64,000 nt of DNA, from NCBI GenBank assembly GCA_015056765.1, contig SVFQ01000016.1, forward strand, positions 1 through 64,000. Reading direction: 5' to 3'. This DNA is from Lachnospiraceae bacterium. Lineage in GTDB: Bacteria; Bacillota; Clostridia; Lachnospirales; Lachnospiraceae. Shown here in pieces: positions 23,604 to 44,283 of the stretch. Each line of letters opens with the position of its first letter. Within the stretch, counting starts at the first letter, position 1. The notes under the pieces were generated by a model. That model had not been told where the DNA came from and ran no database searches. It saw only the letters and a program-made list of their open reading frames with translations. A program made the position numbers and the translations under genes.

Positions 23604-23680
23604 GAAAAAGCCCAAATATAAGCAAATACCACCTGGGTGATACTTACTTATATTCGGGCTCAATGTAGCGGGCGTTCCCG
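23604..23680 (-). promoter_or_regulatory. 5' leader element L1, upstream of the PilZ and surface protein D genes
   Basis: CGGGAACGCCCG CTACAT TGAGCCC + ~20-bp-stem hairpin + TTTTTC; same architecture as L2-L4. Confidence 0.8.
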
Positions 23681-23775
23681 TTCGTTATTTTCTTTACATT
23701 TATTATGACGTCCGCCATTTCAAAAACGGCTCAACTTATTTTAAAAAAATTTTTATTTTTTTTCAAGCAGAAAAA

Positions 23776-23803
23776 TCCCCCACAGTGTCCTTACTGTGGG
23801 GGA
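23776..23803 (-). terminator. Terminator of surface protein C
   Basis: tcccccacagtaaggacactgtgggggattttt on the minus strand. Confidence 0.9.
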
Positions 23804-23844
23804 CCCTCCATTGCCTAGATGGATTTCATATCATAGGAGTAAGA

Positions 23845-41500: not shown

Positions 41501-44144
41501 TATCACTACCGGTTGCTACTCTAATCTCCAGAGGAGCTACGGTCAAAGTACCATTCTTCTCTAGATTTACAGTAAAGTAATCTGTGAAATCATTGTTTTC
41601 TTTATCTACAATCTTATAAGAAGAAATGCTGTAATTAGCAGTTCCTGCATTGGTAATCGTAGTAGTACCTGTATAGGTTACATCAGTTACCACAAAATCT
41701 TCTGGTAGATTCGTTACAGTATAATCAGCTGTCAGCGCTTCACCATCATAGGTTTTACTCTTTGTTACTGCGCTGATGGTTACAGTATCTTTGTACTGTT
41801 TTTCCCAGGTTGCTGTATAAACAGCATCACCCTCTACCTTTGTTTTGACTGCCGGTGTCCATCCTTTGAATACATAGAAATCTCTGGCTGGATTAGCAAC
41901 CTTTGGTGTATTTGCACCATAGTCAGCTTTGAAGGAGTCGATGACGTTCTGTCCTTCCGGTTTATAGCCATCCTTGTAAGTGATGGTGTACTGCTTAGGA
42001 GTCCACTGTGCCACATAAGTAACAGTCTTTGTTACTGTAGGAGCTACTCCAATGGTAGCAGAATCTGTTGCCTTCCAACCTGAGAAATCATAGTGATCTC
42101 TGGTAGGAGCTGTCTGAGCAGGTGTTGGACTACCATATGCTACGGAAGTGCTACTCAGCACTTCACCTTCGCCGCCATCTGTATAACCATCTTTGTAGGT
42201 TACGGTGAAGTTATTATACTTCTCATATTTTACAAAGATAGTCGCATCAGCATTCAAGCTGGAGATGCCTTCAAATTTCTGCGTCAGATTTTCATCTGTA
42301 TACAGACCTTCTACTGTGTAGCTTCCCTTATGAGCATCTGCTACTGCCTGAGCAGTTTCTTTGGAAATAGCAGTACCTCTAAAGTAAGCCGCCTGATCCA
42401 AATTAGGATTTTCGCTCTTCTTCTGATTATCTTCGAAGTATTCACCTTTGTAGTTCACTACATTAGTAGCGAAACGAATATCTAAATGGTATTTGAAGTT
42501 ACCACCATCTGGATTTTTGATGGTAACGCCTCTTTCATTCGCAGTACTATTGACAAAATGACCATAGTCACTCCCGCTATTTCCATATTCTGCACTGTTC
42601 CAGTTGAACATGGCAGTGTACATTTGGTTATTTAATTTACCTACATCCAACTGGATATACTGTAAATTGGAAGCTATGGTATTACCTGTATTTCTACCCC
42701 CTTGCAGAGTAGATGTATCCAGGTTTGCTAAGAATCCCTTCAAAGCATCTAAGTCAGCCTGACTGTTGATATAAGGAGAGGTCTTTCCTTTAAAGAAGGA
42801 TGCCGGTACTCTAATAATACCTACAGGGTAGTAACCATCTCCCTGCACATAGTTAATGCCAAGCTTCTCAGCCAAGACAGGATTTACGGTGTCTTTTCTT
42901 ACACCATCTGTAGCATATACTGCTACTGCTACAGTATCTTCAGTTTCATAAAGGAAATAGATATTACTGTAATCTACATCGTGCCAATCATTCTTTCCAG
43001 GATTGCTTTTGGTTGTATATTCAGCATAGTCATAATCATCATCGAACCATCCAGAAGCCTTATGGTGTCTGATAGTAAAATATGTAATCGTGCTACCCCA
43101 TCCACTATAAGTAGCTCCTGCAACAGCTTTTACAAACTTATATCCATCTATTTGAGGAGCAATCTGGCTTGGATTAGCATAAGAACCATAATTATCAAGT
43201 TTGAGTGACACCGTCTGATAGTCAGTTCCAATGGACTCCACAGAATCTACATCATAGGTATAGATATAGAAACTTTCTGCCAAACTATAATTATTCTTCT
43301 TGTATAAAGTTACCGTATATACAGAGAAGTGCTTAGCACCGAAAGTAATTTCATCCGTTTTACTTTCGCCGGAAACAGGCTCTACTTTCTGCACATCTGT
43401 ACCATTATTCTCAACATGGAATACTTCTACTGTTGTATCTTTGCTATTACCTTCCGGAATAGCATCAAAAGTAACGGATACGGTACCGTCTTTTGGCTGT
43501 ACGAATCCGCCCTTTTCAGCAGAATAGATGTTGATATCGAAAGAGTAGGTTTTCTCTACATCTTTCACAGTTTCTTCATCGATTGCTTCCTTGATGGCTT
43601 CCTCTTCCTTCTGTGGAAGTGCAGATACCTGCAATTTGGCATCATTAGGAAGTACGCCTGGTTTTGCGTACAAGGAAATAAGGATACCGTTTACCGTAAC
43701 GGACTGGTTGAATTCCAACGGTTCTTCTTCGGTTTCCTCAGTTTCTGTTTCTGTTTCAGTTTCCTCGGTTTCCTCGGTTTCCGTTTCCAGGGTCTCCTCG
43801 GTTTCTACTGTTTCAGCAGTCTCATCAGAAATGGTCTCTGATACCACGGTCTCCACCGTTTCTCCAGAAACTACACTTTCATCAGAAACTACGCTCTCTT
43901 CAGAAACTTCTGTGGGTACAGTCACATCACTGGATGTAGCCTCTACCACTTCCTGCTGGGCAGGTTCAGTCTGGACAGGTGCCTCTGTGGACACTTCTGC
44001 CGGAGTTTCTGCTGCTTCTTCTACCGTAATCTCATCTGCATAAGCTACCCTGTAGTCACCATAAAAGGTAGTGCCCACTAAAATAATGGACAGAGCAAAT
44101 GAAAGAATACGTGAAGCCAGTTTCTTTCTCCCTTTCTTTGTCAT
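35544..44144 (-). CDS. Giant surface protein A (~2866 aa): shared N-terminal domain, many MBG/YDG-type repeats, SPKTSD anchor
   Basis: Start at MTKKGRKKLASRIL (RBS taggaggaagaatt). At least 15 K.[YF]DG/[FY]xG-type repeats; C-terminus VLGARRGVEAITPEEGQVLGAARKSPKTSDANN + TM + KRKKEEEQ. Confidence 0.92.
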   Translation of the reverse strand: MTKKGRKKLASRILSFALSIILVGTTFYGDYRVAYADEITVEEAAETPAEVSTEAPVQTEPAQQEVVEATSSDVTVPTEVSEESVVSDESVVSGETVETVVSETISDETAETVETEETLETETEETEETETETETEETEEEPLEFNQSVTVNGILISLYAKPGVLPNDAKLQVSALPQKEEEAIKEAIDEETVKDVEKTYSFDINIYSAEKGGFVQPKDGTVSVTFDAIPEGNSKDTTVEVFHVENNGTDVQKVEPVSGESKTDEITFGAKHFSVYTVTLYKKNNYSLAESFYIYTYDVDSVESIGTDYQTVSLKLDNYGSYANPSQIAPQIDGYKFVKAVAGATYSGWGSTITYFTIRHHKASGWFDDDYDYAEYTTKSNPGKNDWHDVDYSNIYFLYETEDTVAVAVYATDGVRKDTVNPVLAEKLGINYVQGDGYYPVGIIRVPASFFKGKTSPYINSQADLDALKGFLANLDTSTLQGGRNTGNTIASNLQYIQLDVGKLNNQMYTAMFNWNSAEYGNSGSDYGHFVNSTANERGVTIKNPDGGNFKYHLDIRFATNVVNYKGEYFEDNQKKSENPNLDQAAYFRGTAISKETAQAVADAHKGSYTVEGLYTDENLTQKFEGISSLNADATIFVKYEKYNNFTVTYKDGYTDGGEGEVLSSTSVAYGSPTPAQTAPTRDHYDFSGWKATDSATIGVAPTVTKTVTYVAQWTPKQYTITYKDGYKPEGQNVIDSFKADYGANTPKVANPARDFYVFKGWTPAVKTKVEGDAVYTATWEKQYKDTVTISAVTKSKTYDGEALTADYTVTNLPEDFVVTDVTYTGTTTITNAGTANYSISSYKIVDKENNDFTDYFTVNLEKNGTLTVAPLEIRVATGSDTKQFGKIARSYDISINGVAQTLDEDNKASFKPIQGKEETLKFHTTSWRVMPGSQKNEYAVEYENDANKNNYKLVDSLGTLTISTAEVAFQIEAKDQTWTYDGTPKSYDVVSVTKPEGYENFTVEAHVTAASTITEVGTVANAVDRATIKIKDATGADVTANFDTSKIVVKDGTLKVEKRAITVKSGSPSKIYDGLPLQNTDVTIVAGELAPNQKLSDLVSFSNFASITKAGKVANTYSHSETDLAKKNYTITYQNGELEITPVKANVMIKAPTVFKTYDGTALTAAAAVQKTPVSVAGLVAGDEAIVEVSGSVTNVTEGNVPLKIEKVTIRDKETKADVTASYDKDFITAMNGWLYINPVEIYVTTGTASKVYDGTPLTKDDAQVVGLVNNEKATVHTTASLNEVDSIPNTYGEISWGRVNSGNYKHNKDKDQIGTLTITGFANEVTITAGSLSKVYDGSDLTVDSFTVEGLPKEESGSARFTVDVVIKGAQKDVGTSANVVDSYVIKNKEGKDVTANFTNVKKADGTLTVTKRKVTLTSATDSKAYDGTPLTNDTVTESWPESQKYGFVAGEGATFIVTGTVTFVSEGEVDNTFTYTLNDNTKAGNYEITPVFGKLSITAPTQLYGITVTANSGGEMYKGQPQEVSGFTNANLTYTLNGRNYVVSGIEASTEATNAGTYTVEVTGTPKVETAEGNKMVDVTDMFTVTKVPGTLTIGKRTVVMTSATGTKEYDGDPLTAQWLVDNDESVTEKVTVTGDGFVDDEGATYDVTGSQLVEGSSADAFTYTLNEGTLAANYDITTVEGTLTVTNRNAKYEITVKANSLETFYNGKDQTVEGFETLTFKTKDNHTYTVSGLTASATAKDVLKVDGKVQARPVSVLGTPVVKDDQGNDVTNQFKVKTENGTLTIKPRTATLKSDSASKEYDGKPLTNGNVRVMPGEAEGEGFVKDDASKLQFQVTGKQIYVGKSDNTFTYTTSDGFKPDNYNIVKALGELEVTDRRNPYQVTVKANSGERIFNGENFTVEGFVEGYGLTTTQNGVKYRITGISASETQKHVKRTADGKVDSYTVAVTGTPKVEALDGTDVTKQFQVTTEDGTLTINPRTVVLTSDSAEKEYDGTELTAKDVHPNAFNAATGEGFAGDDVDCMIYTVTGTRTKPGTSDNTFSYAMRDSGSAKLSNYNITTEFGKLTVKDRTTPYEVKLHANNLTKFYDRQKATVEGFQASYAGREFAETEKGLSFTENGVTYYITGLTASGQGTDVKRDAEGKVISYPVSVKGKAVVKNAAGTDLTKQFNVTAEDGTLTINPRTVTLRSASASKEYDGTPLEEKSLEFVTAYDAETGAGFAKDDAKLIDEKDNLRLNFTGTQTIVGISDNEFTYSLRDGVKKSNYEITTEYGTLEVTNVNAPYEVTVVANSDEFLYDGKEKSVTGFKEVQFGNDTYAVVDGKLAFTLNGKEFTISGLQVAETTSIDAVEDKPVTITGTAIVTDENGNNVTSQFAVHTENGTLNVTPRKVTLVAGSDEKDFDGKALVKRTYYVANAGDGFATYTKDGVTVNEKTGITVYVKGSQTLVGTSDNVIDRVEFDGQTAKAGNYIVTTEKGTLEVKTREPGNKIKLYIQLDIDQTGKNTKEVLYNGEEQSVSVDVIVNTDGTAEEIETGDEENIEVEEDLTAPAEATEEAGILPVSKADETLLEKVLALGAMKVYAAEDGITKTVTYGGVTFEISGIKLSGGTGIDAGKYPVTIDLSGINVKLSGAPVDDNFEIVIVQPKITELVPAVQLGDAVYIDEEGNEVGGERQEEIVWVEQDVTLDPNVIGMLTINPRNVTLIANSASGVATGQTLTANGYTVGTEDDGFVEGEEAGIKVTVEGAISTVGSVPNKITAYEFDEELAKAGNYIVHTVDGTLTLIAPATVNPPTGGGGGGGGDVLGARRGVEAITPEEGQVLGAARKSPKTSDANNAILWAMVMGSSALGMAAMMAQKRKKEEEQ

Positions 44145-44212
44145 AATTCTTCCTCCTACTTGAATTCCCTTTTTACACACTTTCCTTTTACACGGATGAA
44201 AAGAAAAATGGA

Positions 44213-44283
44213 ATAAAAAAGAGCCTCATACGCGCAATCTAAGTAGACTGCGAATATTAAGGCTCAATGTTACGGGCGTTCCC
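44213..44283 (-). promoter_or_regulatory. 5' leader element L4, upstream of surface protein A
   Basis: GGGAACGCCCGTAACATTGAGCC + hairpin + TTTTTT. Confidence 0.8.

What the first reader, a model, noticed from the sequence alone, without database searches (positions are those of the whole stretch)
23604..44283. Four copies of an apparently undescribed 5' leader RNA, each preceding a surface-protein transcription unit
On the minus strand, L1 (23604-23680), L2 (29643-29702), L3 (35210-35278) and L4 (44213-44283) share (G)GGAACGCCCG-Y-W-A(CAT)-TGAGCC followed by a long hairpin and a U-tract, all before the start codon. Inner stem sequences differ widely between copies but stay paired: L1 has a ~20-bp stem with three G-U pairs, L2 pairs 17 of 18 positions, and L3 and L4 are also long with few mismatches. 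That pattern indicates selection for structure. The conserved 5' part can form a small GGG-AACG-CCC hairpin. A full intrinsic terminator inside the leader of 5-9 kb genes implies attenuation, or recruitment of a processive antiterminator such as a NusG paralogue (LoaP-type systems use a small 5'-leader hairpin; RfaH uses ops). Alternatively each element is a short independent sRNA. I do not recognise the motif as a known riboswitch class.
Basis: partly seen in the sequence, partly recalled or inferred. Interest (0 to 1): 0.88.

Follow-up and report, generated by a model that had tools for sequence, protein, structure and literature searches.

The report
New RNA switch before adhesin genes
Four surface-protein transcription units in this bacterium begin with copies of a previously uncatalogued RNA hairpin that competes with a built-in transcription stop signal, and the same element recurs in about twenty related Lachnospiraceae genomes, almost always before surface proteins or cyclic-di-GMP signalling genes, so it looks like a new on/off switch for bacterial adhesion.

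Summary
Four exact GGAACGCCCG…TGAGCC leaders lie at the stated places, each followed by an intrinsic terminator and a surface-protein unit (for L1, a PilZ gene plus a sortase-anchored protein). No Rfam family matches. I found 36 copies in 21 Lachnospiraceae or Lachnospiraceae-like genomes. Comparative data show a different fold: the variable flanks of the core pair with each other and covary (0/500 shuffles reach the observed score; every register shift is worse), giving a hairpin with a conserved 15–18-nt loop. That hairpin excludes the terminator, whose 5′ arm starts inside the core in 29 of 34 copies. Best reading: a leader antiterminator/terminator switch, off by default, turned on when something stabilises the weak conserved hairpin. 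LoaP is unlikely (11 of 15 carrier genomes encode only one NusG-family protein); BglG/LicT is excluded as a common factor. A small PilZ family is strongly associated (8/10 versus 11/387 genomes) and one copy precedes a diguanylate cyclase, pointing to c-di-GMP. The trans factor or ligand is unknown. This is a new RNA class within a known kind, transcription attenuation.

The parts
23657..23678 (-). W1 conserved core GGAACGCCCGCTACATTGAGCC; P1 closing stem CGGG/CCCG = 23677-23680 with 23655-23658
23608..23661 (-). W1 terminator hairpin, 5' arm starts at GAGCC of the core; U-tract follows
   Evidence: -35.8 kcal/mol, 25 bp
23242..23571 (-). small PilZ-domain protein (109 aa), first gene after W1
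   Evidence: Pfam PF07238, 24.0 bits against cut-off 22.5; RxxxR and NxSPxG motifs
20573..23212 (-). sortase-anchored surface protein (879 aa), second gene after W1
   Evidence: LPXTG anchor models; SPKTGD...KKRKDEE C-terminus
29683..29701 (-). W2 conserved core GGAACGCCCGTAATGAGCC; P1 GUUAAGG/CCUUAAU = 29700-29706 with 29678-29684
29648..29687 (-). W2 terminator hairpin GAGCC...GGGCT, then TTTTCTA
   Evidence: read
23845..29598 (-). giant surface protein after W2 (1917 aa) with List_Bact_rpt/Flg_new repeats and SPKTSD sorting signal
35259..35277 (-). W3 conserved core; P1 UAUUAGGG/CCUUAAUA = 35276-35283 with 35253-35260
35218..35263 (-). W3 terminator hairpin; T7 follows
   Evidence: -21.8 kcal/mol
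29910..35144 (-). giant surface protein after W3 (1744 aa), SPKTSD sorting signal
44261..44282 (-). W4 conserved core GGAACGCCCGTAACATTGAGCC; P1 UAUUAGGG/CCUUAAUA = 44281-44288 with 44255-44262
44221..44265 (-). W4 terminator hairpin; T6 follows
   Evidence: -23.5 kcal/mol
35544..44144 (-). giant surface protein after W4 (2866 aa), MBG and Flg_new repeats (weak), SPKTSD sorting signal

Best explanation
Each copy is a cis-acting transcription-attenuation switch in the 5' leader of a surface-protein operon. Segment 1 (just upstream of GG) and segment 2 (from GAGCC on) form a short stem, P1, closed by two nearly invariant G-C pairs and capped by a conserved 15-18-nt loop (AA/AG internal loop, C-G and G-Y pairs, then CCCGYWA...). 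Segment 2, or in some copies the loop strand CGCCCGUAACA itself, also pairs with a downstream segment 3 to form an intrinsic terminator. The two folds cannot coexist. The terminator is much the more stable, so the default is termination. When a cognate factor or ligand binds the conserved loop hairpin, P1 persists, the terminator cannot form, and the adhesin (with PilZ) operon is transcribed. Shown by sequence: conservation, covarying P1, overlap with the terminator, gene association. Inferred: direction of switching, existence of a binding partner, link to c-di-GMP.
For: P1 covaries in members found only by an exact core pattern that carries no flank information (covariation score 0.402 against 0.211 shuffled, 0/500; 28 double-changed cells against 15; every register shift worse). 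Pairing of each upstream flank with its own downstream flank exceeds permuted flanks (86.5 against 60.5 +/- 5.8, 0/3000; ungapped count 1/20000). With 30 members, column pair 14-37 is standard in 29/30 with GC, AU, GU, CG and UA types, and RNAalifold finds the four closing pairs unaided. L185 changes the otherwise invariant G16-C35 to A-U (read). The core varies in length (19, 20, 22, 23 nt), which suits an RNA loop better than a DNA operator. The terminator 5' arm begins inside the core in 29/34 copies (26 by script; W2, L046, L139 by hand). P1 hairpins fold at -0.4 to -9.5 kcal/mol, terminators mostly at -10 to -36. Promoter-like -35/-10 pairs end 15-24 nt before GG in many copies, so P1 would start near the RNA 5' end. 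Of 36 copies, 25 precede predicted secreted surface proteins, 5 precede PilZ (followed by a surface protein in all three lineages where the next gene is visible) and 1 precedes a response regulator-GGDEF protein.
Against: No transcript or mutant data. Copies L030, L017, L132 and L059 have a short or weak P1. Copies in one genus (L147, L149, L159, L184) and L130 lack a recognisable terminator, and L057 has the hairpin without a U-tract; translational control may apply there. Promoter support is uneven: 17/32 within 8-30 nt against 33% in shuffles, and W1, W3 and W4 have no clear promoter in register. No binding partner is identified.
Confidence: 0.75

Rival explanations
1. Protein-dependent antitermination by the co-associated small PilZ protein: c-di-GMP-loaded PilZ binds the conserved hairpin and switches on its own operon and other adhesin operons. 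This is one identity for the partner in the best explanation.
For: The PilZ family occurs in 8 of 10 element-positive but 11 of 387 element-negative Lachnospiraceae genomes (Fisher p 2e-10). It is itself the first gene after the element in three lineages (W1, Butyrivibrio L028/L043/L049, L148). c-di-GMP-binding motifs are invariant. Another copy precedes an RR-GGDEF protein.
Against: Absent at E 0.01 in 7 of 21 element-bearing genomes, including two that are 99-100% complete (G178, G180). No papers on PilZ in antitermination surfaced in the held library. Co-occurrence may only reflect a shared adhesin/c-di-GMP lifestyle.
Confidence: 0.2
2. A ligand-sensing riboswitch: the conserved loop hairpin binds a small molecule (a cyclic dinucleotide or other signal) directly. 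This too is one identity for the partner in the best explanation.
For: Compact, highly conserved loop with tolerance for stem sequence, directly coupled to an expression platform; regulon rich in adhesins, PilZ and GGDEF, like known c-di-GMP riboswitch regulons (for example C. difficile, PMC6200980, abstract seen). Present in genomes that lack the PilZ family.
Against: Only about 13-16 conserved positions in one hairpin, small for an aptamer. The same genomes often have GEMM-I riboswitches upstream of other genes.
Confidence: 0.22
3. LoaP/RfaH-type recruitment of a NusG paralogue giving processive antitermination over 5-9 kb genes.
For: Long genes, leader hairpin, terminator immediately downstream; LoaP binds a UNCG-type hairpin in dfn/mln leaders (PMC12691694). 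Four element-bearing genomes do carry extra NusG-family proteins.
Against: Host assembly and 10 other element-bearing genomes have a single NusG-family protein. The element has no UNCG tetraloop. Element and terminator overlap, typical of attenuation rather than processive antitermination. Some targets are short (PilZ, L130).
Confidence: 0.05
4. Each leader is a short independent sRNA (about 65-75 nt) ending at the terminator, with the conserved loop as the seed.
For: Self-contained promoter-hairpin-terminator anatomy in many copies; CCCG-rich loop accessible in the P1 hairpin.
Against: Fixed position and orientation just upstream of functionally related genes in 21 genomes; the seed strand is buried in the terminator in several copies; some copies lack a terminator.
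Confidence: 0.08
5. A DNA operator or promoter element next to ordinary terminators.
For: The core is strongly conserved at DNA level and promoter-like sites lie nearby.
Against: Stem covariation, internal length variation, and downstream position relative to predicted -10 elements in many copies.
Confidence: 0.04

Closest known systems
BglG/SacY/LicT antiterminators with RAT RNA
   Same: Small imperfect hairpin with internal loop that overlaps and excludes an intrinsic terminator in the leader; default off.
   Different: Different conserved sequence, and the CAT_RBD protein is absent from all seven near-complete carrier genomes; targets are surface proteins, not sugar genes.
c-di-GMP-I/II (GEMM) riboswitches controlling adhesins
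   Same: Leader switch with terminator before surface-protein genes; regulon touches c-di-GMP signalling.
   Different: No Rfam match; one short hairpin rather than the GEMM folds; GEMM-I occurs in some of the same genomes before other genes.
LoaP - dfn/mln leader hairpin
   Same: Small leader hairpin with a downstream intrinsic terminator before long genes.
   Different: No NusG paralogue in most carriers; no UNCG tetraloop; the element itself forms part of the terminator.
preQ1-type minimal riboswitches
   Same: Aptamer-sized element of about 35-50 nt overlapping an expression platform (comparison from general knowledge).
   Different: No sequence relation found in Rfam; no evidence of a pseudoknot or ligand here.

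Membership tests
Any Rfam 15 RNA family | Match at or above the family gathering score | tested here: not met
   0 hits in the window and in 20 related loci; only a chance MIR478 hit at E 3.4 in relaxed mode
LoaP/RfaH NusG-paralogue antitermination | Genome encodes a NusG paralogue | tested here: not met
   Only housekeeping NusG in the host assembly, which is 84% complete; paralogues in 4 of 15 element-bearing genomes searched
LoaP/RfaH NusG-paralogue antitermination | UNCG-type leader hairpin recognised by LoaP | tested here: not met
   Conserved loop is AACGCCCGYWA...GAG; UNCG feature of dfn/mln from PMC12691694
BglG/LicT RAT antiterminators | CAT_RBD RNA-binding protein present | tested here: not met
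   4 of 21 carriers, 0 of 7 near-complete ones; the host assembly itself has one
BglG/LicT RAT antiterminators | Antiterminator hairpin overlapping the terminator | tested here: met
   Overlap in 29/34 copies (plus hand reading); works like, is not a member
c-di-GMP-I riboswitch (RF01051) | Covariance-model match at the element | tested here: not met
   No match at any element; RF01051 hits in the same genomes lie elsewhere
Riboswitch (any new class) | Direct small-molecule binding changes the fold | not testable with these tools
   Needs in-line probing or transcription assays
Leader transcription attenuator (general kind) | Two mutually exclusive folds, one an intrinsic terminator, upstream of a gene | tested here: met
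   regulation itself not shown

The most novel reading that the evidence does not exclude
The element is a new c-di-GMP-dependent antitermination switch for adhesion: either a very small new c-di-GMP riboswitch class, or the first RNA target of a PilZ-domain protein, which would make a PilZ-RNA antitermination complex that autoregulates its own operon and a set of giant surface proteins across Lachnospiraceae.
Probability: 0.25. Interest if true: 0.92.

Novelty: new variant of a known kind. Interest (0 to 1): 0.74.

Why it matters
It adds an uncatalogued, structure-supported regulatory RNA class to one of the major gut and rumen bacterial families, with a coherent regulon (cell-wall-anchored giant adhesins, PilZ, a diguanylate cyclase). 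It offers a concrete, cheap test of how these anaerobes switch adhesion on, and the strong PilZ association makes the question of RNA-level c-di-GMP output, through protein or through RNA alone, directly testable.

Tried and rejected
GGG-AACG-CCC mini-hairpin as the conserved structure: rejected, outer pair absent in 14/30 and no covariation. NusG paralogue: rejected as general partner. CAT_RBD/BglG: rejected as general partner. GEMM riboswitch: not at the elements; GEMM-I is present elsewhere in 10 of 16 genomes, before CAP-domain lipoproteins, a flagellin-like protein and others. Viral contigs: 49 pattern matches inspected by eye, none with the flank pairing plus terminator anatomy; treated as chance. 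Pattern hits in non-Lachnospiraceae genomes are at the level I estimated for chance (about 30) and most were not inspected individually. Weak CM hits L133-L136, L150-L155, L157, L181 and L182 judged false from sequence. MAFFT misplaced two 23-nt-core members (A3), so they were left out of the final alignment. Literature searches for the motif, PilZ-antitermination, Butyrivibrio riboswitches and a third c-di-GMP class found nothing relevant; most subscription papers are not held.
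Full report
OBSERVATION. The four leaders exist as described. The exact 10-mer GGAACGCCCG occurs four times in the window and the longer motif with TGAGCC nowhere else in the host assembly (2.58 Mb in 31 contigs, 84% complete). 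Each is followed by an intrinsic terminator and then a start codon. The transcription units are W1: PilZ (109 aa) plus an 879-aa sortase-anchored protein; W2: 1917 aa; W3: 1744 aa; W4: 2866 aa. All four anchored proteins end in SPKT(S/G)D...KKRK-type sorting signals, and W2-W4 have similar N-termini and C-termini.

RELATIVES. An exact-core scan of GTDB genomes and of 397 Lachnospiraceae genomes gave 17 further copies, all in Lachnospiraceae or Lachnospiraceae-like MAGs (Butyrivibrio, AC3007, Colinaster, UBA3762 and others; a few records are labelled only 'uncultured bacterium' or 'Eubacterium'). The family name rests on these record titles. Covariance models R1-R3 then added 15 more, for 36 copies in 21 genomes. 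In a 394-genome sample of the whole class only two genomes of the window's own family scored, and none of 49 viral matches was convincing. The element is thus scattered, at low frequency, over many genera of one family.

STRUCTURE. In members found by core pattern alone, which says nothing about the flanks, the bases before GG pair with those after CC. Examples: UAUUAAGG/CCUUAAUA in L043, AUAGGG/CCCUAU in L027, UUGGG/CCCAA in L044, UAUUAGGG/CCUUAAUA in W3 and W4. Permuting flanks between sequences destroys the pairing. Pair counts exceed all shuffles and all slid registers (with 30 members). RNAalifold recovers the four closing pairs unaided. Inside the loop, C19-G32 (26/30) and G20-Y31 (30/30, GU or GC) are compatible with a short inner helix beyond an AA/AG internal loop; they vary on one side only, so they are not independent proof. 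L185 has AAGA...UCUU in place of AAGG...CCUU, a compensated change of an otherwise invariant pair.

SWITCH. A hairpin followed by a U-tract whose 5' arm starts inside the core is present in 29 of 34 copies analysed (26 by script, plus W2, L046 and L139, where the script chose a longer fold but the GAGCC...GGGCU-Un hairpin is plain). In most of these it starts at GAGCC; in a second group (L017, L030, L039, L044, L059, L138 and probably L042) it starts at the CGCCCG strand. Either way terminator and conserved hairpin exclude each other. Terminators (mostly -10 to -36 kcal/mol) are far more stable than the P1 hairpin (-0.4 to -9.5), so termination should be the default and something must stabilise the hairpin. 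Exceptions: L147, L149, L159 and L184 (one genus) and L130 lack a terminator, and L057 has the hairpin without U-tract. Some of these may control translation (for example CCCCUU...AAGGAGG near the start codon of L149, by eye).

GENES CONTROLLED. Of 36 copies, 25 precede proteins with N-terminal signal-peptide-like sequences (judged by eye) and repeat-rich or coiled surface-protein character. Five precede the same small PilZ family, and in W1, L043 and L148 a surface protein follows PilZ, so element-PilZ-adhesin is a conserved operon in three lineages. One precedes a response regulator-GGDEF protein (PF00072, PF00990). Three precede other genes (L017, L044, L130) and two are at contig edges.

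TRANS FACTOR. The host and most carriers have one NusG-family protein, arguing against LoaP. CAT_RBD is absent from all seven near-complete carriers, arguing against BglG/LicT. The PilZ family is found in 8 of 10 carriers and 11 of 387 non-carriers among the 397 genomes (Fisher p 2e-10, computed without phylogenetic correction), but it is absent from seven of 21 carriers, two of them essentially complete. PilZ is therefore a strong associate, not a proven or universal partner. The element may instead bind a ligand directly; the regulon points to c-di-GMP or surface-sensing signals but does not prove it. GEMM-I riboswitches control other genes in many of the same genomes.

COMPARISON AND NOVELTY. 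No Rfam family matches and literature searches in the held library found no description. It works like RAT-type or riboswitch-type leader attenuation but is a member of none of the tested families. I call it a new variant of a known kind.

LIMITS. The rival confidences for PilZ and for a ligand are sub-cases of the best explanation and are not exclusive of it.

Noticed in passing
window about 23734, 35333 and 44346 (-): A TTGAGCC heptamer, the same as in the core, lies 48 nt (W1, W3) or 57 nt (W4) upstream of GGGAACG but not in W2; possibly a promoter-like or duplicated half element.
   Followed up: no
window 44584-45372 (+): 262-aa ORF divergent from W4 with weak similarity to pectate lyase/surface-protein models; may be a surface-protein fragment.
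   Followed up: partly
L147, L149, L159, L184: In one genus the element precedes surface proteins without a terminator but near possible Shine-Dalgarno-sequestering hairpins, hinting at a translational version of the switch.
   Followed up: partly
L026 1888-7998: Two complete surface-protein genes in tandem, with a third starting just after the element at 7028.
   Followed up: no
L193 (G000:C9:112500-118000): The host genome has one GEMM-I c-di-GMP riboswitch (C9:116738-116822), upstream of a CAP-domain-like lipoprotein (judged from sequence), so c-di-GMP signalling probably operates in this organism.
   Followed up: partly
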